A DNA stretch of 64,000 nucleotides from Mastigias papua (Eukaryota > Cnidaria > Scyphozoa > Rhizostomeae > Mastigiidae). Below the pieces are notes generated by a model. It had not been told where the DNA came from. It ran no database searches and saw nothing but the letters and a program-made list of their open reading frames with translations. Both the position numbers and the translations under genes were made by a program. This document shows positions 7,221-40,100 of this stretch, piece after piece; position 1 is the first letter of the stretch; every line of letters starts with the position of its first letter. Location: positions 16,319,093 to 16,383,092 of the forward strand of contig OZ025272.1 of assembly GCA_964019165.1 (NCBI GenBank), in the 5' to 3' direction.

Positions 7221-7503
7221 AAGTCTCATTTAATGACACCAGAAGTGGATACAATTACCAAAACAAAAACACCATTAATTCATGTCTTTGGCTAAGAATT
7301 CATGCTGTAACTTCATGCCTTCGCTTATAGCCATTCAGGCTTACTGTTCAGTTTAAATGGAACAATACCATCCACCTGTTGAATATTCTATGGAATAAAA
7401 CCGTTGAGTTACAAAACATTAAGACCATTAGAACAGAGAGCTCATACTATGACTACTGGCCTAATGACAAAGTCTACTGATGACTGGAAATGTGTTAATG
7501 CCG

Positions 7504-7807
7504 TAAATACTTGAAGTAGCCCCCTGGGAGCTTATTTTTTTATATATTTTTTGAGTGGTGGCTTATTTGAGGGGAGGGCTTATTCAAGGGGGGCTTGTAA
7601 AATTATTTGACATATGTCATATAAAAAGCTCATTGTTTCAGCTCCTATTCTACATAACAGTCTGAAGTTAAGCATTTGTATTTATCAAAGTTTTCATCAT
7701 CATCTGGGATGGGGGCTTATTCAAGGGGGGCTTATTAACAATTTGATGTTCTAGCATAGGGGCTTATTTGAGGAGGAGCTTTTTCAAGGGGGGCAACTTG
7801 AGGGTCT
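7504..7807. mobile_element. Diverged copy of a MITE-like element
   Basis: It shares a chain of motifs with 37969-38284 in the same order: AGCCCCCTGGG, GAGGGGAGGGCTTATTC, GGCTTRTAAAATTATTT, CATCATCTGGG and a closing GGGGCTTATT block. The ends (AAATACTTGAAGTAGCC and a decayed complement near 7800) are worn versions of the terminal inverted repeats intact in the other copy. It has no coding capacity. Calling it a non-autonomous DNA transposon is inference from the second copy's ends. Confidence 0.7.
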
Positions 7808-10161: not shown

Positions 10162-10860
10162 TTAGAGCCCATTTTCATAAATTGGATTTGAACGCCAAAA
10201 ATGTCTTAGCTGTTGTTGCCTCATTGCTACGGTCGTTCCAGATATGTGCTCCTCTAAAAGTGACTGAAATTGAATTTCAACTACTTTGATTTCCATGAAA
10301 GATGCATTCAACTTGTTTATGGTTTTATTGATCTCAGTAAGTAGCAGCTGTAAATTCCTCTGGTGAACAGACACTGAATTACTTTTAATTAGTAGTTCCT
10401 GAAAATTTGAAGTACTATCTTTGTGTATGATTCTCAGGGCTCTTTCATGGATCTTGTTTATCTTATTATACAATTTCCTTTCATGAAACATCCAAACAAA
10501 TGGACATTAACTGAAATGTGACATTACAAAAGAAGTCATTGTTAATTCTAACTGTGACCGTTCCATATATTTTGACACTCTTGCCAGAGCATGTAGCTTT
10601 TTGCTTGTTTTCTTGCAAAGATTATTGACATGATTTTTGAAACTCAATGTTTTGTTGAGTGGCACACCTAAAAGTTTCTCTTCCTCATTTTCCTGTATCA
10701 AAGATCCAGAAATACTTACAGATACCTCATCATCTTTACTCCCGAGGACAAGCAAATGGCTTTTATCCTCAGTCATCTTCATATAGTTATTTTCAAACCA
10801 AAGAGATAACGAAGAGGCATCCTTTTCAAGTGATTTTAAAGATTGAACATTTTCAGAAAT
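10162..10860 (-). mobile_element. LINE remnant (CR1/jockey-type reverse transcriptase C-terminus)
   Basis: Minus-strand frames 10507-10860 and 10162-10491 carry the post-catalytic end of a non-LTR retrotransposon polymerase. Landmarks are EEKLLGVPLNKTLSFKNHV, CKKTSKKLHALARVSKYM, NKINKIHERALRI and SVSVHQRNLQLLLTE. The frame breaks between the two parts. After the residues NASFM the family sequence stops: the next bases are the 33-bp satellite core (10261-10293), and the rest of the frame is not LINE-like. The related copy at 40 kb continues with DIFVENHNNYNLRS. The catalytic domain is missing, so the element is dead. Confidence 0.88.
10261..10293 (+). repeat. Isolated 33-bp copy of the satellite core
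   Basis: These 33 bases, from TGACTGAAATTG to CTACTTTGATTTC, match the middle of the 107-bp satellite unit exactly and in the same orientation as the array. The match ends abruptly on both sides (GTGACTG here against ATGACTG; TTTCCATG here against TTTCAGAT). It is the only copy I see outside 17716-36528. Confidence 0.93.
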
Positions 10861-16744: not shown

Positions 16745-17715
16745 CAGTAACCAGAACTGTATTTGTATAAATGTTTGCTTTAGCATCCAATAATATGTTC
16801 CATTGTAAAATGCGTGTCCATAGACTATACTACAGGTACAAAACTTGACCTGGATAGAATGAATTATGAATGTATGTATGGTATTCATCTTTCAACCTCC
16901 ATTGCAGCATATGTCCTGGTATATGTTTTTTATTTTTCTTATACTTTTACTGTTCTCTTCGTGTCTTCTCTTTATTATATTCTAATATCTTTTGAACTGT
17001 TTTAGCTGTTCCCGGATTGTAGGTCCGACTTCTTATTCCTCATTTTCTACTTTTTCTTGTATTTTTCGCACAAACATACACCATGGGTATGTGCAAGCCA
17101 TCCTCTATCCATTCTGCTCAACTCTGACATGACTCAGATAATATTTCAACTATCCAAAATACTTTTTTTATATCATCTCGTATCGCCTGCGCAATTTCAT
17201 ATATTTTCTCCATCAACTCCTTATTCACAACTTGCTTCAGCCTTTCATGATCTATCATCGTCATATGACCTCTTTGTTTCACAACACCGAAATCTATCTT
17301 TATATCCATTCTTCTATTCAATTAACACTCTTTTCCGACTTGGGTAATAATTCGTCCATCTTCCTCAACTCACCGTTACAAATGATCTATAAATTCAACA
17401 CTACCAATAATTTATTCTCTTTCAAAATGCACTTCAAGATCGTTTTCTTCATTTTGCTACTTTCGTCTACTTCCATCGACCAATGGAGAGGACGCACAAG
17501 AGTTGTAAAATTCACCATTCAACCTATACAATGTAAATCTGATTTTATTATATTTAGAGGAGGTAGAAGGAATAATACATATCATTTTCAATTTTGTTTA
17601 TTCGTTTTTTCAATGTTTTCAATGCAGATTTACCGTACCCTTAACATTAGTTGTTTCTCTCTCTACTTACCACCTAACACATGACGTATCTACAATTAAC
17701 ATAAGAACCATTCTC
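16745..17715. other. Spacer between the ART-like gene and the satellite
   Basis: AT-rich sequence with small overlapping frames on both strands. A minus-strand frame of 67 codons (17118-17321) is Lys/Glu-rich and helical-looking but has no homologue I know and no splice context. No canonical AATAAA was found close to the stop at 16744. Confidence 0.45.
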
Positions 17716-20700
17716 ATAGCCTTGGTATTTTGCCCAAACATGACTGAAATTGAATTTCAACTACTTTGATTTCAGATTGAAAAGTGATGAAAATGAGCCA
17801 ATTTTGGCCGAAAAGTAAGGCTATAGCCTTGGTATTTTGCCCAAACATGACTGAAATTGAATTTCAACTACTTTGATTTCAGATTGAAAAGTGATGAAAA
17901 TGAGCCAATTTTGGCCGAAAAGTAAGGCTATAGCCTTGGTATTTTGCCCAAAAATGACTGAAATTGAATTTCAACTACTTTGATTTCAGATTGAAAAGTG
18001 ATGAAAATGAGCCAATTCTGGCCAAAACGTAAGGCTATAGCCTTGGTATTTTGCCCAAACATGACTGAAATTGAATTTCAACTACTTTGATTTCAGATTG
18101 AAAAGTGATGAAAATGAGCCAATTTTGGCCGAAAAGTAAGGTTATAGCCTTGGTATTTTGCCCAAAAATGACTGAAATTGAATTTCAACTACTTTGATTT
18201 CAGATTGAAAAGTGATGAAAATGAGCCAATTTTGGCCGAAAAGTAAGGCTATAGCCTTGGTATTTTGCCCAAAAATGACTGAAATTGAATTTCAACTACT
18301 TTGATTTCAGATTGAAAAGTGATGAAAATGAGCCAATTTTGGCCGAAAAGTAAGGCTACAGCCTTGGTATTTTGCCCAAAAATGACTGAAATTGAATTTC
18401 AACTACTTTGATTTCAGATTGAAAAGTGATGAAAATGAGCCAATTTTGGCCGAAAAGTAAGGCTATAGCCTTGGTATTTTGCCCAAAAATGACTGAAATT
18501 GAATTTCAACTACTTTGATTTCAGATTGAAAAGTGATGAAAATGAGCCAAGTTTGGCCGAAAAGTAAGGCTATAGCCTTGGTATTTTGCCCAAAAATGAC
18601 TGAAATTGAATTTCAACTACTTTGATTTCAGATTGAAAAGTGATGAAAATGAGCCAATTTTGGCCGAAAAGTAAGGCTATAGCCTTGGTATTTTGCCCAA
18701 AAATGACTGAAATTGAATTTCAACTACTTTGATTTCGGATTGAAAAGTGATGAAAATGAGCCAAGTTTGGCCGAAAAGTAAGGCTATAGCCTTGGTATTT
18801 TGCCCAAAAATGACTGAAATTGAATTTCAACTACTTTGATTTCAGATTGAAAAGTGATGAAAATGAGCCAATTTTGGCCGAAAAGTAAGGCTATAGCCTT
18901 GGTATTTTGCCCAAAAATGACTGAAATTGAATTTCAACTACTTTGATTTCAGATTGAAAAGTGATGAAAATGAGCCAATATTGGCCGAAAAGTAAGGCTA
19001 TAGCCTTGTTATTTTGCCCAAAAATGACTGAAATTGAATTTCAACTACTTTGATTTCAGATTGAAAAGTGATGAAAATGAGCCAAGTTTGGCCGAAAAGT
19101 AAGGCTATAGCCTTGGTATTTTGCCCAAAAATGACTGAAATTGAATTTCAACTACTTTGATTTCAGATTGAAAAGTGATGAAAATGAGCCAATTTTGGCC
19201 GAAAAGTAAGGCTATAGCCTTGGTATTTTGCCCAAACATGACTGAAATTGAATTTCAACTACTTTGATTTCAGATTGAAAAGTGATGAAAATGAGCCAAT
19301 TTTGGCCGAAAAGTAAGGTTATAGCCTTGGTATTTTGCCCAAAAATGACTGAAATTGAATTTCAACTACTTTGATTTCAGATTGAAAAGTGATGAAAATG
19401 AGCCAATTTTGGCCGAAAAGTAAGGCTATAGCCTTGGTATTTTGCCCAAAAATGACTGAAATTGAATTTCAACTACTTTGATTTCAGATTGAAAAGTGAT
19501 GAAAATGAGCCAATTTTGGCCGAAAAGTAAGGCTATAGCCTTGGTATTTTGCCCAAAAATGACTGAAATTGAATTTCAACTACTTTGATTTCAGATTGAA
19601 AAGTGATGAAAATGAGCCAAGTTTGGCCGAAAAGTAAGGCTATAGCCTTGGTATTTTGCCCAAACATGACTGAAATTGAATTTCAACTACTTTGATTTCA
19701 GATTGAAAAGTGATGAAAATGAGCCAAGTTTGGCCGAAAAGTAAGGCTATAGCCTTGGTATTTTGCCCAAAAATGACTGAAATTGAATTTCAACTACTTT
19801 GATTTCAGATTGAAAAGTGATGAAAATGAGCCAATTTTGGCCGAAAAGTAAGGCTATAGCCTTGGTATTTTGCCCAAAAATGACTGAAATTGAATTTCAA
19901 CTACTTTGATTTCAGATTGAAAAGTGATGAAAATGAGCCAATTTTGGCCGAAAAGTAAGGCTATAGCCTTGGTATTTTGCCCAAACATGACTGAAATTGA
20001 ATTTCAACTACTTTGATTTCAGATTGAAAAGTGATGAAAATGAGCCAATTTTGGCCGAAAAGTAAGGCTATAGCCTTGGTATTTTGCCCAGAAATGACTG
20101 AAATTGAATTTCAACTACTTTGATTTCAGATTGAAAAGTGATGAAAATGAGCCAATTTTGGCCGAAAAGTAAGGCTATAGCCTTGGTATTTTGCCCAAAA
20201 ATGACTGAAATTGAATTTCAACTACTTTGATTTCAGATTGAAAAGTGATGAAAATGAGCCAAGTTTGGCCGAAAAGTAAGGCTATAGCCTTGGTATTTTG
20301 CCCAGAAATGACTGAAATTGAATTTCAACTACTTTGATTTCAGATTGAAAAGTGATGAAAATGAGCCAATTTTGGCCGAAAAGTAAGGCTATAGCCTTGG
20401 TATTTTGCCCAAAAATGACTGAAATTGAATTTCAACTACTTTGATTTCAGATTGAAAAGTGATGAAAATGAGCCAAGTTTGGCCGAAAAGTAAGGCTATA
20501 GCCTTGGTATTTTGCCCAAAAATGACTGAAATTGAATTTCAACTACTTTGATTTCAGATTGAAAAGTGATGAAAATGAGCCAATTTTGGCCGAAAAGTAA
20601 GGCTATAGCCTTGGTATTTTGCCCAAAAATGACTGAAATTGAATTTCAACTACTTTGATTTCAGATTGAAAAGTGATGAAAATGAGCCAATTTTGGCCGA

Positions 20701-23700
20701 AAAGTAAGGTTACAGCCTTGGTATTTTGCCCAAAAATGACTGAAATTGAATTTCAACTACTTTGATTTCAGATTGAAAAGTGATGAAAATGAGCCAATTT
20801 TGGCCGAAAAGTAAGGCTATAGCCTTGGTGTTTTGCCCAAAAATGACTGAAATTGAATTTCAACTACTTTGATTTCAGATTGAAAAGTGATGAAAATGAG
20901 CCAATTTTGGCCGAAAAGTAAGGCTATAGCCTTGGTATTTTGCCCAAACATGACTGAAATTGAATTTCAACTACTTTGATTTCAGATTGAAAAGTGATGA
21001 AAATGAGCCAATTTTGGCCGAAAAGTAAGGCTATAGCCTTGGTATTTTGCCCAGAAATGACTGAAATTGAATGTCAACTACTTTGATTTCAGATTGAAAA
21101 GTGATGAAAATGAGCCAATTTTGGCCGAAAAGTAAGGCTATAGCCTTGCTGTTTTGCCCAAACATGACTGAAATTGAATTTCAACTACTTTGATTTCAGA
21201 TTGAAAAGTGATGAAAATGAGCCAAGTTTGGCCGAAAAGTAAGGCTATAGCCTTGGTATTTTGCCCAAAAATGACTGAAATTGAATTTCAACTACTTTGA
21301 TTTCAGATTGAAAAGTGATGAAAATGAGCCAATTTTGGCCGAAAAGTAAGGCTATAGCCTTGGTATTTTGCCCAAAAATGACTGAAATTGAATTTCAACT
21401 ACTTTGATTTCAGATTGAAAAGTGATGAAAATGAGGCAATTTTGGCCGAAAAGTAAGGCTATAGCCTTGGTATTTTGCCCAAACATGACTGAAATTGAAT
21501 TTCAACTACTTTGATTTCAGATTGAAAAGTGATGAAAATGAGCCAATTTTGACCGAAAAGTAAGGTTATAGCCTTGGTATTTTGCCCAAAAATGACTGAA
21601 ATTGAATTTCAACTACTTTGATTTCAGATTGAAAAGTGATGAAAATGAGCCAATTTTGGCCGAAAAGTAAGGCTATAGCCTTGGTATTTTGCCCAAAAAT
21701 GACTGAAATTGAATTTCAACTACTTTGATTTCAGATTGAAAAGTGATGAAAATGAGGCAATTTTGGCCGAAAAGTAAGGCTATAGCCTTGGTATTTTGCC
21801 CAAACATGACTGAAATTGAATTTCAACTACTTTGATTTCAGATTGAAAAGTGATGAAAATGAGCCAATTTTGACCGAAAAGTAAGGTTATAGCCTTGGTA
21901 TTTTGCCCAAAAATGACTGAAATTGAATTTCAACTACTTTGATTTCAGATTGAAAAGTGATGAAAATGAGCCAAGTTTGGCCGAAAAGTAAGGCTATAGC
22001 CTTGGTATTTTGCCCAAAAATGACTGAAATTGAATTTCAACTACTTTGATTTCAGATTGAAAAGTGATGAAAATGAGCCAATTTTGGCCGAAAAGTAAGG
22101 CTATAGCCTTGGTATTTTGCCCAAAAATGACTGAAATTGAATTTCAACTACTTTGATTTCAGATTGAAAAGTGATGAAAATGAGCCAATTTTGGCCGAAA
22201 AGTAAGGTTATAGCCTTGGTATTTTGCCCAAAACTGACTGAAATTGAATTTCAACTACTTTGATTTCAGATTGAAAAGTGATGAAAATGAGGCAATTTTG
22301 GCCGAAAAGTAAGGCTATAGCCTTGGTGTTTTGCCCAAAAATGACTGAAATTGAATTTCAACTACTTTGATTTCAGATTGAAAAGTGATGAAAATGAGCC
22401 AATTTTGGCCGAAAAGTAAGGCTATAGCCTTGTTATTTTGCCCAAAAATGACTGAAATTGAATTTCAACTACTTTGATTTCAGATTGAAAAGTGATGAAA
22501 ATGAGCCAAGTTTGGCCGAAAAGTAAGGCTATAGCCTTGGTATTTTGCCCAAACATGACTGAAATTGAATTTCAACTACTTTGATTTCAGATTGAAAAGT
22601 GATGAAAATGAGCCAATTTTGGCCGAAAAGTAAGGCTATAGCCTTGTTATTTTGCCCAAAAATGACTGAAATTGAATTTCAACTACTTTGATTTCAGATT
22701 GAAAAGTGATGAAAATGAGCCAAGTTTGGCCGAAAAGTAAGGCTATAGCCTTGGTATTTTGCCCAGAAATGACTGAAATTGAATTTCAACTACTTTGATT
22801 TCAGATTGAAAAGTGATGAAAATGAGCCAATTTTGGCCGAAAAGTAAGGCTATAGCCTTGGTATTTTGCCCAAACATGACTGAAATTGAATTTCAACTAC
22901 TTTGATTTCAGATTGAAAAGTGATGAAAATGAGCCAATTTTGGCCGAAAAGTAAGGCTATAGCCTTGGTATTTTGCCCAAAAATGACTGAAATTGAATTT
23001 CAACTACTTTGATTTCAGATTGAAAAGTGATGAAAATGAGCCAATTTTGGCCGAAAAGTAAGGCTATAGCCTTGGTATTTTGCCCAAAAATGACTGAAAT
23101 TGAATTTCAACTACTTTGATTTCAGATTGAAAAGTGATGAAAATGAGCCAATTTTGGCCGAAAAGTAAGGTTATAGCCTTGGTATTTTGCCCAAAAATGA
23201 CTGAAATTGAATTTCAACTACTTTGATGTCAGATTGAAAAGTGATGAAAATGAGCCAATTTTGGCCGAAAAGTAAGGCTATAGCCTTGGTGTATTGCCCA
23301 AAAATGACTGAAATTGAATTTCAACTACTTTGATTTCAGATTGAAAAGTGATGAAAATGAGCCAATTTTGGCCGAAAAGTAAGGCTATAGCCTTGTTATT
23401 TTGCCCAAAAATGACTGAAATTGAATTTCAACTACTTTGATTTCAGATTGAAAAGTGATGAAAATGAGCCAAGTTTGGCCGAAAAGTAAGGCTATAGCCT
23501 TGGTATTTTGCCCAAACATGACTGAAATTTAATTTCAACTACTTTGATTTCAGATTGAAAAGTGATGAAAATGAGCCAAGTTTGGCCGAAAAGTAAGGCT
23601 ATAGCCTTGGTATTTTGCCCAAACATGACTGAAATTGAATTTCAACTACTTTGATTTCAGATTGAAAAGTGATGAAAATGAGCCAAGTTTGGCCGAAAAG

Positions 23701-23930
23701 TAAGGCTATAGCCTTGGTATTTTGCCCAAAAATGACTGAAATTGAATTTCAACTACTTTGATTTCAGATTGAAAAGTGATGAAAATGAGCCAATTTTGGC
23801 CGAAAAGTAAGGCTATAGCCTTGGTATTTTGCCCAAACATGACTGAAATTGAATTTCAACTACTTTGATTTCAGATTGAAAAGTGATGAAAATGAGCCAA
23901 TTTTGGCCGAAAAGTAAGGCTATAGCCTTG

Positions 23931-25070
23931 GTGTTTTGCCCAAAAATGACTGAAATTGAATTTCAACTACTTTGATTTCAGATTGAAAAGTGATGAAAAT
24001 GAGCCAATTTTGGCCGAAAAGTAAGGCTATAGCCTTGTTATTTTGCCCAAAAATGACTGAAATTGAATTTCAACTACTTTGATTTCAGATTGAAAAGTGA
24101 TGAAAATGAGCCAAGTTTGGCCGAAAAGTAAGGCTATAGCCTTGGTATTTTGCCCAAAAATGACTGAAATTTAATTTCAACTACTTTGATTTCAGATTGA
24201 AAAGTGATGAAAATGAGCCAATATTGGCCGAAAAGTAAGGCTATAGCCTTGTTATTTTGCCCAAAAATGACTGAAATTGAATTTCAACTACTTTGATTTC
24301 AGATTGAAAAGTGATGAAAATGAGCCAAGTTTGGCCGAAAAGTAAGGCTATAGCCTTGGTATTTTGCCCAAAAATGACTGAAATTGAATTTCAACTACTT
24401 TGATTTCAGATTGAAAAGTGATGAAAATGAGCCAATTTTGGCCGAAAAGTAAGGTTATAGCCTTGGTATTTTGCCCAAAAATGACTGAAATTGAATTTCA
24501 ACTACTTTGATTTCAGATTGAAAAGTGATGAAAATGAGCCAATTTTGGCCGAAAAGTAAGGCTATAGCCTTGGTGTTTTGCCCAAAAATGACTGAAATTG
24601 AATTTCAACTACTTTGATTTCAGATTGAAAAGTGATGAAAATGAGCCAATTTTGGCCGAAAAGTAAGGCTATAGCCTTGTTATTTTGCCCAAAAATGACT
24701 GAAATTGAATTTCAACTACTTTGATTTCAGATTGAAAAGTGATGAAAATGAGCCAAGTTTGGCCGAAAAGTAAGGCTATAGCCTTGGTATTTTGCCCAAA
24801 AATGACTGAAATTTAATTTCAACTACTTTGATTTCAGATTGAAAAGTGATGAAAATGAGCCAATATTGGCCGAAAAGTAAGGCTATAGCCTTGTTATTTT
24901 GCCCAAAAATGACTGAAATTGAATTTCAACTACTTTGATTTCAGATTGAAAAGTGATGAAAATGAGCCAAGTTTGGCCGAAAAGTAAGGCTATAGCCTTG
25001 GTATTTTGCCCAAAAATGACTGAAATTGAATTTCAACTACTTTGATTTCAGATTGAAAAGTGATGAAAAT
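23931..25070 (+). repeat. Six-unit (642-bp) higher-order repeat inside the satellite
   Basis: From 23931 the variant order is GGTGTTTT, GTTATTTT, an AAGTTTGG unit, a unit with TTTAATTTC, AATATTGG and another GTTATTTT. The same order restarts at 24573, exactly 6 x 107 later, and holds for about four to five units before diverging. Confidence 0.8.
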
Positions 25071-28000
25071 GAGCCAATTTTTGCCGAAAAGTAAGGCTAT
25101 AGCCTTGGTATTTTGCCCAAACATGACTGAAATTGAATTTCAACTACTTTGATTTCAGATTGAAAAGTGATGAAAATGAGCCAATTTTGGCCGAAAAGTA
25201 AGGCTATACCCTTGTTATTTTGCCCAAAAATGACTGAAATTGAATTTCAACTACTTTGATTTCAGATTGAAAAGTGATGAAAATGAGCCAATTTTGGCCG
25301 AAAAGTAAGGCTATAGCCTTGGTATTTTGACCAAAAATGACTGAAATTGAATTTCAACTACTTTGATTTCAGATTGAAAAGTGATGAAAATGAGCCAATT
25401 TTGGCCGAAAAGTAAGGCTACAGCCTTGGTATTTTGCCCAAACATGACTGAAATTGAATTTCAACTACTTTGATTTCAGATTGAAAAGTGATGAAAATGA
25501 GCCAATTTTGGCCGAAAAGTAAGGCTATAGCCTTGGTATTTTGCCCAAAAATGACTGAAATTGAATTTCAACTACTTTGATTTCAGATTGAAAAGTGATG
25601 AAAATGAGCCAATTTTGGCCGAAAAGTAAGGCTATAGCCTTGGTATTTTGCCCAAAAATGACTGAAATTGAATTTCAACTACTTTGATTTCAGATTGAAA
25701 AGTGATGAAAATGAGCCAATTTTGGCCGAAAAGTAAGGCTATAGCCTTGGTATTTTCCCCAAACATGACTGAAATTGAATTTCAACTACTTTGATTTCAG
25801 ATTGAAAAGTGATGAAAATGAGCCAAGTTTGGCCGAAAAGTAAGGCTATAGCCTTGGTATTTTGCCCAAAAATGACTGAAATTGAATTTCAACTACTTTG
25901 ATTTCAGATTGAAAAGTGATGAAAATGAGCCAATTTTGGCCGAAAAGTAAGGCTATAGCCTTGGTATTTTGCCCAAAAATGACTGAAATTGAATTTCAAC
26001 TACTTTGATTTCAGATTGAAAAGTGATGAAAATGAGCCAATTTTGGCCGAAAAGTAAGGCTTTAGCCTTGGTATTTTGCCCAAACATGACTGAAATTGAA
26101 TTTCAACTACTTTGATTTCAGATTGAAAAGTGATGAAAATGAGCCAATTTTGGCCGAAAAGTAAGGCTATAGCCTTGGTATTTTGCCCAGAAATGACTGA
26201 AATTGAATTTCAACTACTTTGATTTCAGATTGAAAAGTGATGAAAATGAGCCAATTTTGGCCGAAAAGTAAGGCTATAGCCTTGGTATTTTGCCCAAAAA
26301 TGACTGAAATTGAATTTCAACTACTTTGATTTCAGATTGAAAAGTGATGAAAATGAGCCAAGTTTGGCCGAAAAGTAAGGCTATAGCCTTGGTATTTTGC
26401 CCAAAAATGACTGAAATTTAATTTCAACTACTTTGATTTCAGATTGAAAAGTGATGAAAATGAGCCAATATTGGCCGAAAAGTAAGGCTATAGCCTTGTT
26501 ATTTTGCCCAAAAATGACTGAAATTGAATTTCAACTACTTTGATTTCAGATTGAAAAGTGATGAAAATGAGGCAATTTTGGCCGAAAAGTAAGGCTATAG
26601 CCTTGGTATTTTGCCCAAAAATGACTGAAATTGAATTTCAACTACTTTGATTTCAGATTGAAAAGTGATGAAAATGAGCCAATTTTTGCCGAAAAGTAAG
26701 GCTATAGCCTTGGTATTTTGCCCAAACATGACTGAAATTGAATTTCAACTACTTTGATTTCAGATTGAAAAGTGATGAAAATGAGCCAATTTTGGCCGAA
26801 AAGTAAGGCTATACCCTTGTTATTTTGCCCAAAAATGACTGAAATTGAATTTCAACTACTTTGATTTCAGATTGAAAAGTGATGAAAATGAGCCAATTTT
26901 GGCCGAAAAGTAAGGCTATAGCCTTGGTATTTTGCCCAAAAATGACTGAAATTGAATTTCAACTACTTTGATTTCAGATTGAAAAGTGATGAAAATGAGC
27001 CAAGTTTGGCCGAAAAGTAAGGCTATAGCCTTGGTATTTTGCCCAAACATGACTGAAATTGAATTTCAACTACTTTGATTTCAGATTGAAAAGTGATGAA
27101 AATGAGCCAAGTTTGGCCGAAAAGTAAGGCTATAGCCTTGGTATTTTGCCCAAAAATGACTGAAATTGAATTTCAACTACTTTGATTTCAGATTGAAAAG
27201 TGATGAAAATGAGCCAATTTTGGCCGAAAAGTAAGGCTATAGCCTTGGTATTTTGCCCAAAAATGACTGAAATTGAATTTCAACTACTTTGATTTCAGAT
27301 TGAAAAGTGATGAAAATGAGCCAATTTTGGCCGAAAAGTAAGGCTATAGCCTTGGTATTTTCCCCAAACATGACTGAAATTGAATTTCAACTACTTTGAT
27401 TTCAGATTGAAAAGTGATGAAAATGAGCCAAGTTTGGCCGAAAAGTAAGGCTATAGCCTTGGTATTTTGCCCAGAAATGACTGAAATTGAATTTCAACTA
27501 CTTTGATTTCAGATTGAAAAGTGATGAAAATGAGCCAATTTTGGCCGAAAAGTAAGGCTATAGCCTTGGTATTTTCCCCAAACATGACTGAAATTGAATT
27601 TCAACTACTTTGATTTCAGATTGAAAAGTGATGAAAATGAGCCAAGTTTGGCCGAAAAGTAAGGCTATAGCCTTGGTATTTTGCACAAAAATGACTGAAA
27701 TTGAATTTCAACTACTTTGATTTCAGATTGAAAAGTGATGAAAATGAGGCAATTTTGGCCGAAAAGTAAGGCTATAGCCTTGGTATTTTGCCCAAAAATG
27801 ACTGAAATTGAATTTCAACTACTTTGATTTCAGATTGAAAAGTGATGAAAATGAGCCAATTTTGGCCGAAAAGTAAGGCTATAGCCTTGGTATTTTGCCC
27901 AAACATGACTGAAATTGAATTTCAACTACTTTGATTTCAGATTGAAAAGTGATGAAAATGAGCCAATTTTGGCCGAAAAGTAAGGCTATAGCCTTGGTAT

Positions 28001-31000
28001 TTTGCCCAGAAATGACTGAAATTGAATTTCAACTACTTTGATTTCAGATTGAAAAGTGATGAAAATGAGCCAATTTTGGCCGAAAAGTAAGGCTATAGCC
28101 TTGGTATTTTGCCCAAAAATGACTGAAATTGAATTTCAACTACTTTGATTTCAGATTGAAAAGTGATGAAAATGAGCCAAGTTTGGCCGAAAAGTAAGGC
28201 TATAGCCTTGGTATTTTGCCCAAAAATGACTGAAATTGAATTTCAACTACTTTGATTTCAGATTGAAAAGTGATGAAAATGAGCCAAATTTGGCCGAAAA
28301 GTAAGGCTACAGCCTTGGTATTTTGCCCAAACATGACTGAAATTGAATTTCAACTACTTTGATTTCAGATTGAAAAGTGATGAAAATGAGGCAATTTTGG
28401 CCGAAAAGTAAGGCTATAGCCTTGGTATTTTGCCCAAACATGACTGAAATTGAATTTCAACTACTTTGATTTCAGATTGAAAAGTGATGAAAATGAGCCA
28501 AGTTTGGCCGAAAAGTAAGGCTATAGCCTTGGTATTTTGCCCAAAAATGACTGAAATTGAATTTCAACTACTTTGATTTCAGATTGAAAAGTGATGAAAA
28601 TGAGCCAATTTTGGCCGAAAAGTAAGGCTATAGCCTTGGTATTTTCCCCAAACATGACTGAAATTGAATTTCAACTACTTTGATTTCAGATTGAAAAGTG
28701 ATGAAAATGAGCCAAGTTTGGCCGAAAAGTAAGGCTATAGCCTTGGTATTTTGCCCAAAAATGACTGAAATTGAATTTCAACTACTTTGATTTCAGATTG
28801 AAAAGTGATGAAAATGAGCCAATTTTGGCCGAAAAGTAAGGCTATAGCCTTGTTATTTTGCCCAAAAATGACTGAAATTGAATTTCAACTACTTTGATTT
28901 CAGATTGAAAAGTGATGAAAATGAGCCAAGTTTGGCCGAAAAGTAAGGCTATAGCCTTGGTATTTTGCCCAAACATGACTGAAATTGAATTTCAACTACT
29001 TTGATTTCAGATTGAAAAGTGATGAAAATGAGCCAATTTTGGCCGAAAAGTAAGGCTATAGCCTTGTTATTTTGCCCAAAAATGACTGAAATTGAATTTC
29101 AACTACTTTGATTTCAGATTGAAAAGTGATGAAAATGAGCCAAGTTTGGCCGAAAAGTAAGGCTATAGCCTTGGTATTTTGCCCAGAAATGACTGAAATT
29201 GAATTTCAACTACTTTGATTTCAGATTGAAAAGTGATGAAAATGAGCCAATTTTGGCCGAAAAGTAAGGCTATAGCCTTGGTATTTTGCCCAAACATGAC
29301 TGAAATTGAATTTCAACTACTTTGATTTCAGATTGAAAAGTGATGAAAATGAGCCAATTTTGGCCGAAAAGTAAGGCTATAGCCTTGGTATTTTGCCCAA
29401 AAATGACTGAAATTGAATTTCAACTACTTTGATTTCAGATTGAAAAGTGATGAAAATGAGCCAATTTTGGCCGAAAAGTAAGGCTATAGCCTTGGTATTT
29501 TGCCCAAAAATGACTGAAATTGAATTTCAACTACTTTGATTTCAGATTGAAAAGTGATGAAAATGAGCCAATTTTGGCCGAAAAGTAAGGCTATAGCCTT
29601 GGTATTTTGCCCAGAAATGACTGAAATTGAATGTCAACTACTTTGATTTCAGATTGAAAAGTGATGAAAATGAGCCAATTTTGGCCGAAAAGTAAGGCTA
29701 TAGCCTTGCTGTTTTGCCCAAACATGACTGAAATTGAATTTCAACTACTTTGATTTCAGATTGAAAAGTGATGAAAATGAGCCAAGTTTGGCCGAAAAGT
29801 AAGGCTATAGCCTTGGTATTTTGCCCAAAAATGACTGAAATTGAATTTCAACTACTTTGATTTCAGATTGAAAAGTGATGAAAATGAGCCAATTTTGGCC
29901 GAAAAGTAAGGCTATAGCCTTGGTATTTTGCCCAAAAATGACTGAAATTGAATTTCAACTACTTTGATTTCAGATTGAAAAGTGATGAAAATGAGGCAAT
30001 TTTGGCCGAAAAGTAAGGCTATAGCCTTGGTGTTTTGCCCAAAAATGACTGAAATTGAATTTCAACTACTTTGATTTCAGATTGAAAAGTGATGAAAATG
30101 AGCCAAGTTTGGCCGAAAAGTAAGGCTATAGCCTTGGTATTTTGCCCAAAAATGACTGAAATTGAATTTCAACTACTTTGATTTCAGATTGAAAAGTGAT
30201 GAAAATGAGCCAAGTTTGGCCGAAAAGTAAGGCTATAGCCTTGGTATTTTGCCCAAAAATGACTGAAATTGAATTTCAACTACTTTGATTTCAGATTGAA
30301 AAGTGATGAAAATGAGGCAATTTTGGCCGAAAAGTAAGGCTATAGCCTTGGTATTTTGCCCAAACATGACTGAAATTGAATTTCAACTACTTTGATTTCA
30401 GATTGAAAAGTGATGAAAATGAGCCAATTTTGGCCGAAAAGTAAGGCTATAGCCTTGGTATTTTGCCCAAAAATGACTGAAATTGAATTTCAACTACTTT
30501 GATTTCAGATTGAAAAGTGATGAAAATGAGCCAATTTTGGCCGAAAAGTAAGGCTATAGCCTTGGTATTTTGCCCAGAAATGACTGAAATTGAATTTCAA
30601 CTACTTTGATTTCAGATTGAAAAGTGATGAAAATGAGCCAATTTTGGCCGAAAAGTAAGGCTATAGCCTTGGTATTTTGCCCAAAAATGACTGAAATTGA
30701 ATTTCAACTACTTTGATTTCAGATTGAAAAGTGATGAAAATGAGCCAAGTTTGGCCGAAAAGTAAGGCTATAGCCTTGGTATTTTGCCCAAAAATGACTG
30801 AAATTGAATTTCAACTACTTTGATTTCAGATTGAAAAGTGATGAAAATGAGCCAAATTTGGCCGAAAAGTAAGGCTACAGCCTTGGTATTTTGCCCAAAC
30901 ATGACTGAAATTGAATTTCAACTACTTTGATTTCAGATTGAAAAGTGATGAAAATGAGGCAATTTTGGCCGAAAAGTAAGGCTATAGCCTTGGTATTTTG

Positions 31001-32453
31001 CCCAAACATGACTGAAATTGAATTTCAACTACTTTGATTTCAGATTGAAAAGTGATGAAAATGAGCCAAGTTTGGCCGAAAAGTAAGGCTATAGCCTTGG
31101 TATTTTGCCCAAAAATGACTGAAATTGAATTTCAACTACTTTGATTTCAGATTGAAAAGTGATGAAAATGAGCCAATTTTGGCCGAAAAGTAAGGCTATA
31201 GCCTTGGTATTTTGCCCAAAAATGACTGAAATTGAATTTCAACTACTTTGATTTCAGATTGAAAAGTGATGAAAATGAGGCAATTTTGGCCGAAAAGTAA
31301 GGCTATAGCCTTGGTATTTTGCCCAAACATGACTGAAATTGAATTTCAACTACTTTGATTTCAGATTGAAAAGTGATGAAAATGAGCCAAGTTTGGCCGA
31401 AAAGTAAGGCTATAGCCTTGGTATTTTGCCCAAACATGACTGAAATTGAATTTCAACTACTTTGATTTCAGATTGAAAAGTGATGAAAATGAGCCAATTT
31501 TGGCCGAAAAGTAAGGCTATAGCCTTGGTATTTTGCCCAAACATGACTGAAATTGAATTTCAACTACTTTGATTTCAGATTGAAAAGTGATGAAAATGAG
31601 CCAATTTTGGCCGAAAAGTAAGGCTATAGCCTTGGTATTTTGCCCAAAAATGACTGAAATTGAATTTCAACTACTTTGATTTCAGATTGAAAAGTGATGA
31701 AAATGAGCCAATTTTGGCCGAAAAGTAAGGCTACAGCCTTGGTATTTTGCCCAAACATGACTGAAATTGAATTTCAACTACTTTGATTTCAGATTGAAAA
31801 GTGATGAAAATGAGCCAATTTTGGCCGAAAAGTAAGGCTATAGCCTTGGTGTTTTGCCCAAACATGACTGAAATTGAATTTCAACTACTTTGATTTCAGA
31901 TTGAAAAGTGATGAAAATGAGCCAATTTTGGCCGAAAAGTAAGGCTATAGCCTTGGTATTTTGCCCAAAAATGACTGAAATTGAATTTCAACTACTTTGA
32001 TTTCAGATTGAAAAGTGATGAAAATGAGCCAAGTTTGGCCGAAAAGTAAGGCTATAGCCTTGGTATTTTGCCCAAAAATGACTGAAATTGAATTTCAACT
32101 ACTTTGATTTCAGATTGAAAAGTGATGAAAATGAGGCAATTTTGGCCGAAAAGTAAGGCTATAGCCTTGGTATTTTGCCCAAACATGACTGAAATTGAAT
32201 TTCAACTACTTTGATTTCAGATTGAAAAGTGATGAAAATGAGCCAAGTTTGGCCGAAAAGTAAGGCTATAGCCTTGGTATTTTGCCCAAAAATGACTGAA
32301 ATTGAATTTCAACTACTTTGATTTCAGATTGAAAAGTGATGAAAATGAGCCAATTTTGGCCGAAAAGTAAGGCTATAGCCTTGGTATTTTGCCCAAAAAT
32401 GACTGAAATTGAATTTCAACTACTTTGATTTCAGATTGAAAAGTGATGAAAAT

Positions 32454-33870
32454 GAGGCAATTTTGGCCGAAAAGTAAGGCTATAGCCTTGGTATTTTGCC
32501 CAAACATGACTGAAATTGAATTTCAACTACTTTGATTTCAGATTGAAAAGTGATGAAAATGAGCCAAGTTTGGCCGAAAAGTAAGGCTATAGCCTTGGTA
32601 TTTTGCCCAAACATGACTGAAATTGAATTTCAACTACTTTGATTTCAGATTGAAAAGTGATGAAAATGAGCCAATTTTGGCCGAAAAGTAAGGCTATAGC
32701 CTTGGTATTTTGCCCAAACATGACTGAAATTGAATTTCAACTACTTTGATTTCAGATTGAAAAGTGATGAAAATGAGCCAATTTTGGCCGAAAAGTAAGG
32801 CTATAGCCTTGGTATTTTGCCCAAAAATGACTGAAATTGAATTTCAACTACTTTGATTTCAGATTGAAAAGTGATGAAAATGAGCCAATTTTGGCCGAAA
32901 AGTAAGGCTACAGCCTTGGTATTTTGCCCAAACATGACTGAAATTGAATTTCAACTACTTTGATTTCAGATTGAAAAGTGATGAAAATGAGGCAATTTTG
33001 GCCGAAAAGTAAGGCTATAGCCTTGGTATTTTGCCCAAACATGACTGAAATTGAATTTCAACTACTTTGATTTCAGATTGAAAAGTGATGAAAATGAGCC
33101 AAGTTTGGCCGAAAAGTAAGGCTATAGCCTTGGTATTTTGCCCAAACATGACTGAAATTGAATTTCAACTACTTTGATTTCAGATTGAAAAGTGATGAAA
33201 ATGAGCCAATTTTGGCCGAAAAGTAAGGCTATAGCCTTGGTATTTTGCCCAAACATGACTGAAATTGAATTTCAACTACTTTGATTTCAGATTGAAAAGT
33301 GATGAAAATGAGCCAATTTTGGCCGAAAAGTAAGGCTATAGCCTTGGTATTTTGCCCAAAAATGACTGAAATTGAATTTCAACTACTTTGATTTCAGATT
33401 GAAAAGTGATGAAAATGAGCCAATTTTGGCCGAAAAGTAAGGCTACAGCCTTGGTATTTTGCCTACACATGACTGAAATTGAATTTCAACTACTTTGATT
33501 TCAGATTGAAAAGTGATGAAAATGAGGCAATTTTGGCCGAAAAGTAAGGCTATAGCCTTGGTATTTTGCCCAAACATGACTGAAATTGAATTTCAACTAC
33601 TTTGATTTCAGATTGAAAAGTGATGAAAATGAGCCAAGTTTGGCCGAAAAGTAAGGCTATAGCCTTGGTATTTTGCCCAAACATGACTGAAATTGAATTT
33701 CAACTACTTTGATTTCAGATTGAAAAGTGATGAAAATGAGCCAATTTTGGCCGAAAAGTAAGGCTATAGCCTTGGTATTTTGCCCAAACATGACTGAAAT
33801 TGAATTTCAACTACTTTGATTTCAGATTGAAAAGTGATGAAAATGAGCCAATTTTGGCCGAAAAGTAAGG
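32454..33870 (+). repeat. Five-unit (535-bp) higher-order repeat inside the satellite
   Basis: The marker GAGGCA recurs at 32454, 32989 and 33524, spaced exactly 5 x 107. Between markers the units read GAGGCA, AAGTTTGG, AATTTTGG, AATTTTGG, then AATTTTGG with GGCTACA. The third period loses the pattern near 33870. A related block starts at 31277, 11 units upstream. Confidence 0.85.
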
Positions 33871-36528
33871 TTATAGCCTTGGTATTTTGCCCAAAAATGA
33901 CTGAAATTGAATTTCAACTACTTTGATTTCAGATTGAAAAGTGATGAAAATGAGCCAAGTTTGGCCGAAAAGTAAGGCTATAGCCTTGGTATTTTGCCCA
34001 AAAATGACTGAAATTGAATTTCAACTACTTTGATTTCAGATTGAAAAGTGATGAAAATGAGCCAATTTTGGCCGAAAAGTAAGGCTATAGCCTTGGTATT
34101 TTGCCCACAAATGACTGAAATTGAATTTCAACTACTTTGATTTCAGATTGAAAAGTGATGAAAATGAGCCAATTTTGGCCGAAAAGTAAGGTTACAGCCT
34201 TGGTATTTTGCCCAAAAATGACTGAAATTGAATTTCAACTACTTTGATTTCAGATTGAAAAGTGATGAAAATGAGCCAATTTTGGCCGAAAAGTAAGGCT
34301 ATAGCCTTGGTGTTTTGCCCAAAAATGACTGAAATTGAATTTCAACTACTTTGATTTCAGATTGAAAAGTGATGAAAATGAGCCAAGTTTGGCCGAAAAG
34401 TAAGGCTATAGCCTTGGTATTTTGCCCAAAAATGACTGAAATTGAATTTCAACTACTTTGATTTCAGATTGAAAAGTGATGAAAATGAGGCAATTTTGGC
34501 CGAAAAGTAAGGCTATAGCCTTGGTATTTTGCCCAAAAATGACTGAAATTGAATTTCAACTACTTTGATTTCAGATTGAAAAGTGATGAAAATGAGCCAA
34601 TTTTGGCCGAAAAGTAAGGTTATAGCCTTGGTATTTTGCCCAAAAATGACTGAAATTGAATTTCAACTACTTTGATTTCAGATTGAAAAGTGATGAAAAT
34701 GAGCCAATTTTGGCCGAAAAGTAAGGCTATAGCCTTGGTATTTTGCCCAGAAATGACTGAAATTGAATGTCAACTACTTTGATTTCAGATTGAAAAGTGA
34801 TGAAAATGAGCCAATTTTGGCCGAAAAGTAAGGCTATAGCCTTGTTATTTTGCCCAAAAATGACTGAAATTGAATTTCAACTACTTTGATTTCAGATTGA
34901 AAAGTGATGAAAATGAGCCAAGTTTGGCCGAAAAGTAAGGCTATAGCCTTGGTATTTTGCCCAAAAATGACTGAAATTGAATTTCAACTACTTTGATTTC
35001 AGATTGAAAAGTGATGAAAATGAGCCAATATTGGCCGAAAAGTAAGGCTATAGCCTTGTTATTTTGCCCAAAAATGACTGAAATTGAATTTCAACTACTT
35101 TGATTTCAGATTGAAAAGTGATGAAAATGAGCCAAGTTTGGCCGAAAAGTAAGGCTATAGCCTTGGTATTTTGCCCAAAAATGACTGAAATTGAATTTCA
35201 ACTACTTTGATTTCAGATTGCAAAGTGATGAAAATGAGCCAATGTTTGCCGAAAAGTAAGGCTATAGCCTTGGTGTTTTGCCCAAAAATGACTGAAATTG
35301 AATTTCAACTACTTTGATTTCAGATTGAAAAGTGATGAAAATGAGCCAATTTTGGCCGAAAAGTAAGGCTATAGCCTTGTTATTTTGCCCAAAAATGACT
35401 GAAATTGAATTTCAACTACTTTGATTTCAGATTGAAAAGTGATGAAAATGAGCCAATTTTGGCCGAAAAGTAAGGCTATAGCCTTGGTATTTTGCCCAAA
35501 AATGACTGAAATTGAATTTCAACTACTTTGATTTCAGATTGAAAAGTGATGAAAATGAGCCAATTTTGGCCGAAAAGTAAGGCTATAGCCTTGGTATTTT
35601 GCCCAAACATGACTGAAATTGAATTTCAACTACTTTGATTTCAGATTGAAAAGTGATGAAAATGAGCCAATTTTGGCCGAAAAGTAAGGCTATAGCCTTG
35701 GTATTTTGCCCAAACATGACTGAAATTGAATTTCAACTACTTTGATTTCAGATTGAAAAGTGATGAAAATGAGCCAATTTTGGCCGAAAAGTAAGGCTAT
35801 AGCCTTGGTATTTTGCCCAAAAATGACTGAAATTGAATTTCAACTACTTTGATTTCAGATTGAAAAGTGATGAAAATGAGCCAATTTTGGCCGAAAAGTA
35901 AGGCTATAGCCTTGGTATTTTGCCCAAAAATGACTGAAATTGAATTTCAACTACTTTGATTTCAGATTGAAAAGTGATGAAAATGAGCCAATTTTGGCCG
36001 AAAAGTAAGGCTATAGCCTTGGTGTTTTGCCCAAAAATGACTGAAATTTAATTTCAACTACTTTGATTTCAGATTGAAAAGTGATGAAAATGAGCCAAGT
36101 TTGGCCGAAAAGTAAGGCTATAGCCTCGGTATTTTGCCCAAAAATGACTGAAATTGAATTTCAACTACTTTGATTTCAGATTGAAAAGTGATGAAAATGA
36201 GCCAATTTTGGCCGAAAAGTAAGGCTATAGCCTTGGTATTTTGCCCAAAAATGACTGAAATTGAATTTCAACTACTTTGATTTCAGATTGAAAAGTGATG
36301 AAAATGAGCCAATTTTGGCCGAAAAGTAAGGCTATAGCCTTGGTATTTTGCCCAAAAATGACTGAAATTGAATTTCAACTACTTTGATTTCAGATTGAAA
36401 AGTGATGAAAATGAGCCAATTTTGGCCGAAAAGTAAGGCTATAGCCTTGGTATTTTGCCCAAAAATGACTGAAATTGAATTTCAACTACTTTGATTTCAG
36501 ATTGAAAAGTGACGAAAATGAGCCAATT

Positions 36529-37175
36529 GTGACGAAGTGAGTTGGTGTAGAGCGATGTTATGTGGCCTAAAATGTGCTTAAGTGAGTATGAACGAGGTTT
36601 ATGTCAGACTGAAGAAGTAGAATGATTGGTGGGTTATGAACGGGTCATCGTGTTGTAAAATGACTAGGATGTAGCATAGCAATTTGAGGAAAATCAGCAG
36701 CTCGATCATGAGTGAACTTCGAAGAAAAGTCACGTAATGTGAAATTACTGTATGTCGTTGTGAAATGCCACTACTGAAGGCTTACTCTTATTGAGAGATG
36801 AGCGGAATGATATCACTTGTCAACCTCCAAGCAAAGGCGATAGATTTACAGCGTAAAAATGCAAGAAAGAATAAGTGATGGAGTGATGGACAAGTGATGG
36901 AGACTTAAGGGAAATTTCTGTATCAGAGGTAAATTGGACAACTCAATGGGCTGAAGGATCGAGATACTAAGTAAAATGAGTTGGTAACATTTGTATTACG
37001 GTAATATTATCTTCTGACAGTTATTTAATCTTAAGTCAAAGACAACAATATATGATCTTCCCAATGATGGGTTGAAATGCCTACAAACCATACAGAAGTT
37101 AACAGATTATCGAACGATTTTCCTAGTAAAACATCCAGTCGTTATCACTTACTTTGCATAGTATAAATCAATATG
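36529..37175. other. Right flank of the satellite; no gene seen
   Basis: The satellite match stops at AGCCAATT and is followed by unrelated purine-rich sequence with frequent stops in every frame. The part next to 37175 should be the 3' UTR of the minus-strand gene. Confidence 0.5.
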
Positions 37176-40100
37176 TCAAAACTGGCCAGAGTCTTGAAGC
37201 CTTTCTAAAATCAACTGTCCTTTCTCTAATCGATGCCTTCTTAGATCCTCAAGTGGCAGGGCATAAAACCTCCCTATAGATAACGTTAAGTTCTCCACAA
37301 GACTATTGTCTATAATACAAGGTGTAGCAACGTTTTCGTTCGCGGCAAGTATCAGAACGCACACGTGTCCAGAAGGAATAGGGTGACCGTTAAGACTATC
37401 CTGTTCAAAATATGGAATCCCCACCGCCAAGCTTCGTCCATCTTTTACGTAAGTGACTCCTGAAAAGCAAATTTTATTAACTACTAAATGAGAGAAGAAG
37501 CTATAATTGATAATTATAACTAATCAAATCAAATGAATACCGTTTAAAAGCAGCTTCATGTGCTTAATTCCTACCATCCCACCATCCCTCGAACCTAAGA
37601 TCTTCTGCACACAAGGTATTCTTAGGTCCCTAATAAACGGGGGGATGCATATTAATTTTTCATGTTTTTTCCGACCACCTTGGAGCTTCTTAGCACCTAC
37701 GTCTACCAAATTTCAAGGAATGAAACATGGTATGGAGGTTTTCTCAGTAAGAAAAGAAATTTCTTCGTTCACTAAGTGATAGTGCTTCTGTCACTAATTG
37801 AATGCATTTTTTTATGTTTGTGATAAGCACAATAGGCAGTTAAATTTCCATTCGATTTTAGAAATATTTCCAACCCCCCGCCGCTTATTAGGAACCTAAA
37901 AGCAAGCACCCCAACATTAGATCATTGTGGCAGTACGTTGCAATTGTAGATATAATGTAATGTACCGTAAATCCTCGAATTAGCCCCCTGGGGGCTTATT
38001 TATTTTTGGTGCTTTTTGGGTGGGGGACAATTCGAGGGGAGGGCTTATTCGAGGGGGCTTATAAAATTATTTACACATGTCACATAAAAAGTTTATTGCC
38101 AATGCTCCCATTCTCCATAATATTAAACTAACAGTCTAAATTTAAGCATTAGTCTTTATCAAAGTCTCCATCATCATCTGGGGAGGGGGCATATTCCAGA
38201 GGAGCTTAGTAACAACTTGAAGTTCTAGCATGGGGGCTTATTCGAGGGGAGGGGCTTATTCGAGGGCGGCCAATTCGAGGATTTGCGACATTTATGTCTA
38301 CACCATTCGCAGAATAACCGCCACCAGGATACAGCGAATATTCGCAAATTAACATCGTGCACTACAGAATTTTCATATTGACCGAAGAAGAGGAAACACT
38401 CTGTAGCATATAGTGAAATTTAAAGTGATAGTGCGAGGAAACAACCAATCCAAGCTGGATTCGAACTCAAGACCTCTGACTCTGCACATGTTGTGAAACT
38501 ACATTTTTCGTTCGACACTCATCAAGAATGAAACGCCTGATTATTACCAAAAGGTGGACAAAAGTACATTACTAGATGCCGATCAAACAGCCCCGTTCAA
38601 ATTTTCAGTTAATATCTCACGATTTGTAATATGATGAGTGTCAAATGAAAAAAGTTTTCAGTATGCTACGAAGTCTCTCCGCTCTTTCCAGCAATGATGA
38701 ATGAATGAAAATGTTCAAAATGAGAAATAATAGGTTACCTTGGCTGGCTATGTCTGGTGTTGCACTGTCTACGAAGGAAGTAGAGTCAAGAATTCAAGTT
38801 GTGGCATCAAATATGCGTACATTAAAAATCATATCAATCTATCACTGCTAAAAGAAGACAATAAAGTCATTGCTAAAAACCTATCGTATTACCTTTATGC
38901 TTGTAAGATGTCTGCTGGTCTTCTAGCAAACCTAACAGAACGATAAAATTCGAATCGCCGAATCACTTAAAAATTTTGTGGGGATAGTTTATTCTATGTT
39001 TTAAAATAACAGTCTAGTTATGATAAAAACCTGAAGTGGAAGTAAGATTATACTGGAAAGTTGATAGAAAAAGAGAGGAAGAATAGCAACGGTAGTTGCA
39101 GGTGAAATGGAAATTGAATCTGAGCGAATTTATGAGTTGAGTTGACAAAGTCAAAAATTACGGTCAAGTTTACATGAATGTGAAGAGGCATTAATAGTCC
39201 AGCGTAACTATCAAATGCTTGACTGCTTGAGAGCACTGACCAGGCAAGCGACCAATCATCAAGCAAGATCGGCCTAAACTTTGCTGTGGAACGTACTTCT
39301 GGTCAGAATCCTGCATGATGATTGGTCAATTAGGCTGGGAGAAAATAGACCTAGTCAGATCTCTCAACCAATCAAACATTCAGTGGCTATGGCTACCAGA
39401 CTCTCTTCAACTGCATACAATGTAAGACTGAAAAAATAGTTATATATGATTGGCTAGGCAATGGAGAGTACAATATCGTACATATGGGATGCTGTTTCCC
39501 TAATACCTTAACTTCAACTTCTTGTTCAACTTAATAACATAAAATGTGGCTTAATAACTGACCAACTTCATTTGTAGGACTGCCAGACAAGGCCTTTACA
39601 TATTCAATCGAAGCTGAGAGGATTTTGTTCATTTCGCTTACTGGCATAGTTGGCAGCCCACGTCCTCTTTTGTTTGGAGATCTGAACTCAACATCTCTTG
39701 GCCACCAAAGTGGTTTTGCAGTCTTCCAGTTTCGTTTTTGTGCCATATCTGAGAAAAAGAGGAATCAAAACAAGAAAGGTGTACATATGCACAGGCCTTT
39801 CAATGAGACGCGCGCAATCGCGCACGAGCGCGCAGGCACGCCTCCAGCTCAGTTCACGCGCTCGATTTGTAGCTCGCGCCAGCTTTATCAAAAATACACA
39901 TCCAAGTATGTATATATACTTCTTTACAGTTGGCTTTTTAAAATAATAAACAGAAAAAAAAAACGTAGCATATTAATGCTAATTAAGGCCAACTTCTACT
40001 ACAATTTAAATACGGAAAGATAAAATAGATAAAACCTAATTACAATGATGCTTATTTACAAAAATCCTACGCCTAATATAAAAACTTTACACAACCTGCA

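What the first reader, a model, noticed from the sequence alone, without database searches (positions are those of the whole stretch)
17716..36528. 18.8-kb satellite of 107-bp units with zero net indels over 175 periods
The distance between first and last anchor is exactly 175 x 107, and every intermediate point sampled is in register. Substitutions are present (several recurrent two-state sites), so the copies are not freshly identical, yet length is kept to the base. That suggests homogenisation by conversion or unequal exchange in whole units, selection on length or phase, or an assembly built from in-register reads. The unit family is one I do not recognise.
Basis: seen in the sequence. 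Interest (0 to 1): 0.8.

Follow-up and report, generated by a model that had tools for sequence, protein, structure and literature searches.

The report
Locally homogenised 107-bp satellite DNA array
A stretch of DNA repeats one 107-letter unit 175 times without a single inserted or lost letter; similar arrays sit on other contigs of the same animal-like genome, and the perfect spacing can come from recent copying of whole units, although the array edges that were read share an odd strand bias that is not explained.

Summary
Positions 17716-36528 hold 175 full 107-bp units plus 86 bp, with no internal indel (not just no net indel), a mean of 1.23 substitutions per unit, and 40 distinct unit sequences. 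The window lies in a 347-Mb genome. At least eight further arrays of the family lie on seven contigs, one of them the window's own. Three of these are almost free of length variants (C13 0 of 37 units, C22 1 of 160, C8 2 of 132); others hold up to 54 of 298. So 107 bp is not strictly enforced. The array turns over in whole-unit blocks, one of 5 units being present four times, and 715 of 763 distinct units are nearest only to units of their own array. It is a locally homogenised, gene-flanked satellite: a new member of a known kind.

By-product: at all 15 array edges read (of 18), the first 100 bp read outward are G-rich and C-poor (mean GC skew +0.48), although 12 flanks tested are unrelated in sequence. 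Seven of the 15 flanks also hold decayed satellite. The skew is strong in these data and unexplained.

The parts
17716..36528 (+). Satellite array: 175 full 107-bp units plus 86 bp, head to tail, no indel
31198..33979 (+). Units 127-152, holding four copies of a 5-unit higher-order block (starts 31198, 32375, 32910, 33445), 0-6 differences between copies (random 5-unit pairs average 10.5)
36547..36618 (+). Decayed unit in register with the array just beyond its right edge: 39 of 72 bases match, best of 107 phases (next best 35), 0 of 2000 shuffles
36725..36847 (-). Probable inverted decayed unit (local score 46 in the first 400 bp of the flank, 0 of 100 dinucleotide shuffles)
16916..17715 (.). 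Left skirt, C-rich and G-poor on the + strand: GC skew -0.54 in the 100 bp next to the array, +0.08 in the next 100, then -0.38, -0.57, -0.28 in 200-bp steps
36532..36931 (.). Right skirt, G-rich and C-poor on the + strand: GC skew +0.61, +0.32, then +0.31 for 200-400 bp
10256..10293 (+). 38-bp copy of unit positions 21-58 (window type, 97% identical) inside a LINE reverse-transcriptase remnant, where about 37 codons of the element are missing and its frame resumes beyond: looks like templated filler

Best explanation
The array is one locus of a dispersed satellite family in a eukaryotic (probably animal) genome. Each locus evolves mainly on its own: blocks of one to several whole units are duplicated or lost by unequal exchange, conversion or replication slippage, so that a few founder variants spread through the array. 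The 215 mismatches to the consensus are copies of only 32 mutation states, so few independent mutations are represented, and no indel is among them. Shown: exact register, recurring blocks, array-specific variants, length variants in sister arrays. Inferred: the recombination mechanism and the recent homogenisation of this array. It most likely has no length-dependent function.
For: Gapless 107-bp register with 40 unit types. Repeated runs of variant units against 0 of 300 shuffles, and a 5-unit block four times. Nearest neighbour only in own array for 715 of 763 distinct units, ties 41, elsewhere 7 (done before the last 16 kb of C11 and C15 were fetched). Eight sister arrays with the same period; their consensus sequences are 8-11 of 107 sites from the window's and 1-7 from each other. 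Length variants in 7 of 8 sister arrays, 139 of 1675 units. The least diverse sister array, C13 (0.51 substitutions per unit), also has none.
Against: The pooled sister rate predicts 4.65 indels in W (P of none 0.010), so W is cleaner than the average sister. C8 and C22 are more diverse than W yet almost free of indels, so youth alone does not order the arrays (Spearman of diversity against share of indel units 0.41, P 0.27, 9 arrays). The inner 57 bp of the unit is nearly free of variation in W (5 of 57 columns against 23 of 50 outside; 9 of 20000 permutations), which whole-unit homogenisation alone does not explain.
Confidence: 0.85

Rival explanations
1. Unit length or phase is under selection (for example an ordered protein or nucleosome lattice), which removes indels.
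For: 107 bp is the modal spacing in all 9 arrays; W has fewer indels than the pooled rate predicts (P 0.010).
Against: 7 of 8 other arrays hold length variants of 103 to 116 bp, several of them amplified; 54 of 298 units in C15.
Confidence: 0.08
2. The array length or its uniformity is an assembly artefact (in-register collapse, or polishing that removed indels).
For: A sister array (C1b) has a run of N at its left end (149 N in L032), though N can also mean withheld sequence; many indels of C11 and C15 are seen in one unit only (24 of 31 and 22 of 37) and might be consensus errors, so consensus quality may differ between arrays.
Against: The window array is crossed without N; it has private variants, block structure and its own core sequence, which a consensus of mixed reads would hardly give.
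Confidence: 0.07
3. The satellite descends from, or still travels as, a small transposon with terminal inverted repeats or a Helitron with central repeats.
For: The unit's ends form an inverted repeat that meets in a perfect 14-bp palindrome AAGGCTATAGCCTT (1524 of 1728 junctions of the 9 arrays hold a perfect palindrome; 51 of 5000 mononucleotide shuffles of the unit reach 14 bp; the junction finder itself favours this motif); arrays lie on seven contigs.
Against: Array ends fall, as far as I can tell by eye, at many different unit positions and only a few near the palindrome; 12 flanks are not related to one another, so no shared element ends were found.
Confidence: 0.15

Closest known systems
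Dispersed satellite DNAs such as those of Crassostrea gigas (PMC8268682; abstract and section 2.3 read)
   Same: Arrays of tandem repeats scattered over the genome; the longest standalone array there is about 40 kb.
   Different: There, 9 of 11 inspected satellites are mostly found with Helitron end boxes; here no shared flanking box was found in the flanks compared.
Grapevine 107-bp centromeric repeat (PMC10199708; passages read)
   Same: Same unit length; multiples of the unit also occur.
   Different: Used there to define centromeres, 1.4 kb to 3.8 Mb in total per chromosome, in a plant; here arrays of 4 to at least 44 kb, two each on contigs C1 and C8, the window's next to genes. The grapevine unit was not aligned.
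Locally evolving satellites with higher-order repeats (alpha-satellite type; recalled, nothing read)
   Same: Block duplication of several units, array-specific variants.
   Different: Only a short 5-unit order in part of the array.

Membership tests
satellite DNA | long head-to-tail array of a non-coding unit | tested here: met
   175.8 copies; stops in all six frames of the repeated consensus
satellite DNA | concerted evolution: units more alike within than between arrays | tested here: met
   715 of 763 distinct units nearest only to own array
satellite DNA | several arrays in the genome | tested here: met
   at least 8 further arrays on 7 contigs
centromeric satellite | CENP-A binding | not testable with these tools
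   needs ChIP or CUT&RUN
centromeric satellite | one main array per chromosome, away from genes | tested here: not met
   two arrays each on C1 and C8; the window array starts about 1 kb after an uninterrupted 591-aa frame with a DUF3990 domain and close relatives. The genome was not fully surveyed.
MITE-derived tandem array | terminal inverted repeats of the unit | tested here: inconclusive
   14-bp palindrome at the junction, wider 24-nt arms 75% complementary
MITE-derived tandem array | solitary copies with target-site duplication | not tested
   genome search did not complete
Helitron with central repeats | shared end boxes around each array | tested here: not met
   12 flanks (first 250 bp) show no mutual similarity above shuffles; masked flanks share only a few scattered matches
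hammerhead-ribozyme satellite | hammerhead or other Rfam motif | tested here: not met
   no Rfam match at gathering score in the window

The most novel reading that the evidence does not exclude
Satellite arrays of this family sit at, or create, a switch point of strand composition: on both sides the strand leading away from the array is G-rich and C-poor for some 200-400 bp, although the flanks share no sequence. This would point to a process tied to array ends, for example arrays seeded at, or acting as, replication initiation sites, outward transcription with R-loops, or strand invasion that prefers GT-rich DNA.
Probability: 0.25. Interest if true: 0.6.

Novelty: new member of a known kind. 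Interest (0 to 1): 0.3.

Why it matters
The headline property, zero indels over 175 units, does not need a special mechanism, which is useful for reading satellites from assemblies: register alone says little when most variants are copies of few mutations. Nine arrays in one genome, homogenised to different degrees, are a good set for measuring satellite turnover. The strand-biased edges, if they hold in a full survey, would be a testable clue to where satellite arrays start and stop.

Tried and rejected
The unit's core was sought as an exact 26-base pattern in prokaryote genome contigs and viral contigs, a 428-bp stretch by blastn in plasmids and phages, and four short strings in open-access papers: no match (the tools warn that records of the window's own genome may be left out). 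Rfam and tRNA scans of the window: none. Naming the organism through its assembly size in papers failed. Two proteins of the window have 98-99% matches in unnamed ENA records, so the species stays unknown; 'animal' is my inference from gene content.

Readings of the edge skew. As decayed satellite: relics of the unit do lie within 400 bp of 7 of 15 edges (C1b_R, C5_R, C8_L, C22_R, C1a_L, C1a_R, W_R; score not reached by any of 100 shuffles), so the arrays often sit in older satellite; but the other 8 edges show no relic and share the skew, in-register identity falls to about chance within one to three 30-bp steps at all edges but W_R, and the left skirts have the opposite sign to the unit. An A/G-C/T reduced alphabet gave scores above most shuffles at C5_R, C8_L and C22_R only, weakly at C1b_R (13 flanks). 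As telomere repeats: TTAGGG occurs once outward, none inward. As C deamination alone: T is not raised against 400-600 bp out. As a shared element: no similarity above shuffles. As an effect on anything next to satellite DNA: the two edges of a 1368-bp insert inside array C1b show none, though that insert may be young.

Exchange between arrays as source of the window's variants: 30 of 32 states also occur among 967 units elsewhere, but 77% would be expected for random states, so this is weak.

Full report
Observation. TRF finds one array, 17716-36528, period 107, 175.8 copies, no indels. Cutting every 107 bases leaves 175 units with 0-5 mismatches each to the consensus, mean 1.23. There are 28 variable columns, 32 non-consensus states and 40 unit types, 41 units being identical to the consensus.

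Where it is. The window is G000:C8:16319093-16383092 in a 346.8-Mb genome of 172 contigs. The array lies between an uninterrupted 591-aa frame with a DUF3990 domain (14969-16744, + strand) and sequence with a 115-aa open frame on the - strand (37176-37523, no Pfam match, so its being a gene is not shown). Ankyrin and EF-hand frames lie further out. This is gene-bearing DNA, not a gene desert.

Sister arrays. One DNA search gave 189 matches in the genome. It scored only part of its candidates and listed only part of its matches, so this is a lower bound. The listed matches fall in eight other places, on C1 (two), C5, C8, C11, C13, C15 and C22. Fetched and measured, all have modal period 107. 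Spans seen: C1a 23.2 kb, C1b at least 20.4 kb with a stretch of N at its left end, C5 31.7, C8 14.2, C11 at least 43.7, C13 4.1, C15 at least 32.4, C22 17.2 kb. From positions and contig lengths, all nine arrays lie within 24% of a contig length from the nearer end; nine uniform places would do so with a chance of about 0.001 (my arithmetic; two pairs share a contig, the survey is incomplete, and I do not know that contigs are whole chromosomes).

Why there are no indels. In the eight sister arrays 139 of 1675 units hold an indel, with 89 distinct indels against 612 distinct substitution states (spacings outside 90-130 bp and units with N were left out). Some have spread: a 4-bp deletion in 11 units of C1a, a 9-bp insertion in 10 units of C1b, a 1-bp deletion in 12 units of C11. 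A 107-bp length is therefore not enforced in the family. At the pooled ratio W would be expected to have 4.65 indels (P of none 0.010; Fisher 0.024). With the smaller part of C11 and C15 that I had first, the figure was 2.2 (P 0.11, Fisher 0.25). I report both, because the ratio is very uneven: 0.32 and 0.27 in C15 and C11, where 22 of 37 and 24 of 31 distinct indels are seen in one unit only and may be consensus errors, but 0.013, 0.015 and 0 in C8, C22 and C13. W belongs with the clean arrays. I judge that the result does not require selection on length, but it does not exclude a mild form of it.

How the array changes. Runs of variant units recur: the longest exact run has 5 informative units, and 9 runs have 3 or more; none of 300 shuffles of unit order reaches either value (in an earlier set of 500 shuffles the largest run also reached 5 at least once). 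Units 127, 138, 143 and 148 start copies of one 5-unit block (0-6 differences; random 5-unit pairs average 10.5). Of 763 distinct 107-bp units over nine arrays, 715 have their nearest relative only in their own array, 41 tie and 7 lie elsewhere; one unit sequence is shared between two arrays, C5 and C22. This is local concerted evolution by whole units.

The window's own subfamily. Its consensus differs from the common consensus of the others at positions 30, 40, 43, 45, 46, 47, 49, 57 and 95; six of these nine fall in 10 bp (15 of 20000 permutations). Some of the window's states also occur elsewhere (position 43 in most units of C8 and C11, position 57 in C11, position 95 in many of C5), but those at 40, 45 and 46 were seen in no other unit. 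Within W the columns 26-82 hardly vary (5 of 57 variable, against 23 of 50 outside; Fisher 1.6e-5; 9 of 20000 circular permutations; the stretch was chosen by eye). In other arrays the contrast is weaker or absent: none in C8 and C5, 1.2- to 2-fold in C1a, C11, C13 and C15, about three- to fourfold in C1b and C22, about twentyfold in W. I cannot explain it; a block-wise event in the core followed by recent spread is my guess.

A piece of the window-type core, 38 bp at 97% identity, stands at 10256-10293 in a LINE remnant. A related copy at C5 has about 37 codons there that the remnant lacks, and the remnant's LINE frame resumes beyond the piece (the codons were counted by eye). This reads as filler copied from the satellite during repair of a break; the direction is inferred from the LINE relative, which lacks it.

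Dyad symmetry. Units meet in AAGGCTATAGCCTT; a perfect 14-bp palindrome is found at 153 of 175 window junctions and 1371 of 1553 others (the search for junctions used this motif with up to 6 substitutions, so the count is biased upward). Single strands of the unit fold better than most shuffled ones (z -2.0 to -3.3 over six folds). Dyads are common in satellites (recalled) and prove no function.

Array edges. I could read 15 of 18 edges; C1b left, C11 left and C15 right were not reached. Reading outward, GC skew in the first 100 bp is positive in 15 of 15 (mean +0.48), in the second 100 bp in 14 of 15 (+0.27), then 12 of 15 and 10 of 14, and 6 of 14 at 400-600 bp. Over 200 bp the mean is +0.379 against 1222 background windows with sd 0.170; no resample in 300000 came above +0.209; 9 of 15 edges are at +0.4 or more, against 1.4% of background windows. 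Twelve edges gave rise to the idea; C22_R (+0.65 over 200 bp), C1a_L (+0.14) and C1a_R (+0.67 and +0.44 in the first two 50-bp bins) were read later and agree in sign, one of them weakly. The flanks are not related (mean pair score 18.89; shuffled 18.96, sd 0.34; 12 flanks). GTG, GGT and TGT are over-represented, CCC nearly absent, the A/T balance is about even.

Relics of the unit lie within 400 bp of 7 of the 15 edges, in either orientation (no shuffle of 100 reaches their score); beside the window array one is in register (39 of 72 bases, best of 107 phases, 0 of 2000 shuffles) and one inverted. So these arrays often stand in older, decayed satellite, as expected if homogenisation does not reach the ends. 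The other 8 edges have no relic and share the skew, so relics do not explain it in general. Because the two flanks of an array show it in opposite strands, a gene reading through cannot explain both; in the window the left-hand gene points towards the array. Target preference, an origin-like or outward-transcribed array, or GT-preferring strand pairing (recalled from work on Rad51; not tested, and the listing gave no paper with that term) remain. One search of papers for satellite DNA, flanking, GC skew and strand asymmetry found none with all four terms, which says little.

Literature. The C. gigas satellitome (PMC8268682, abstract and section 2.3) shows that scattered satellite arrays are known. 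The grapevine genome (PMC10199708, passages) has a centromeric repeat of the same length. The review PMC10048060 (passages) treats tandem repeats in euchromatin as common. Other papers were seen in search listings only.

Verdict. The finding is true but ordinary in kind. The part worth following is the strand bias at the edges.

Noticed in passing
15 edges of 9 arrays; in the window 16916-17715 and 36532-36931: The outward-reading strand is G-rich and C-poor at every array edge read, decaying within about 400 bp; the flanks tested are unrelated in sequence.
   Followed up: partly
window 17716-36528, unit columns 26-82: The inner 57 bp of the unit is almost free of variation in this array although the outer 50 bp vary at a level within the range of sister arrays.
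   Followed up: partly
window 10256-10293: 38-bp piece of the window-type unit inside a LINE reverse-transcriptase remnant, likely templated repair filler.
   Followed up: partly
L010/L011 (G000:C1:2114201-2115568 and 2118264-2119631): A 1368-bp reverse-transcriptase fragment inserted in array C1b is present twice, 100% identical, 4063 bp apart: an insert amplified together with satellite units.
   Followed up: partly
L011 (G000:C1:2121177-2121796): About 620 bp of older, diverged satellite in inverted orientation beyond the right edge of array C1b.
   Followed up: no
window 14969-16744: Uninterrupted 591-aa frame with a DUF3990 domain; 11 relatives of 46-99% identity found, all in unnamed ENA or JGI records (the search scored the best 7997 candidates only).
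   Followed up: no
window 37958-38280 and 7496-7803: Two copies of a repeat, 78% identical; the first contains several GGGGCTTATTCGAGGG-like stretches.
   Followed up: no
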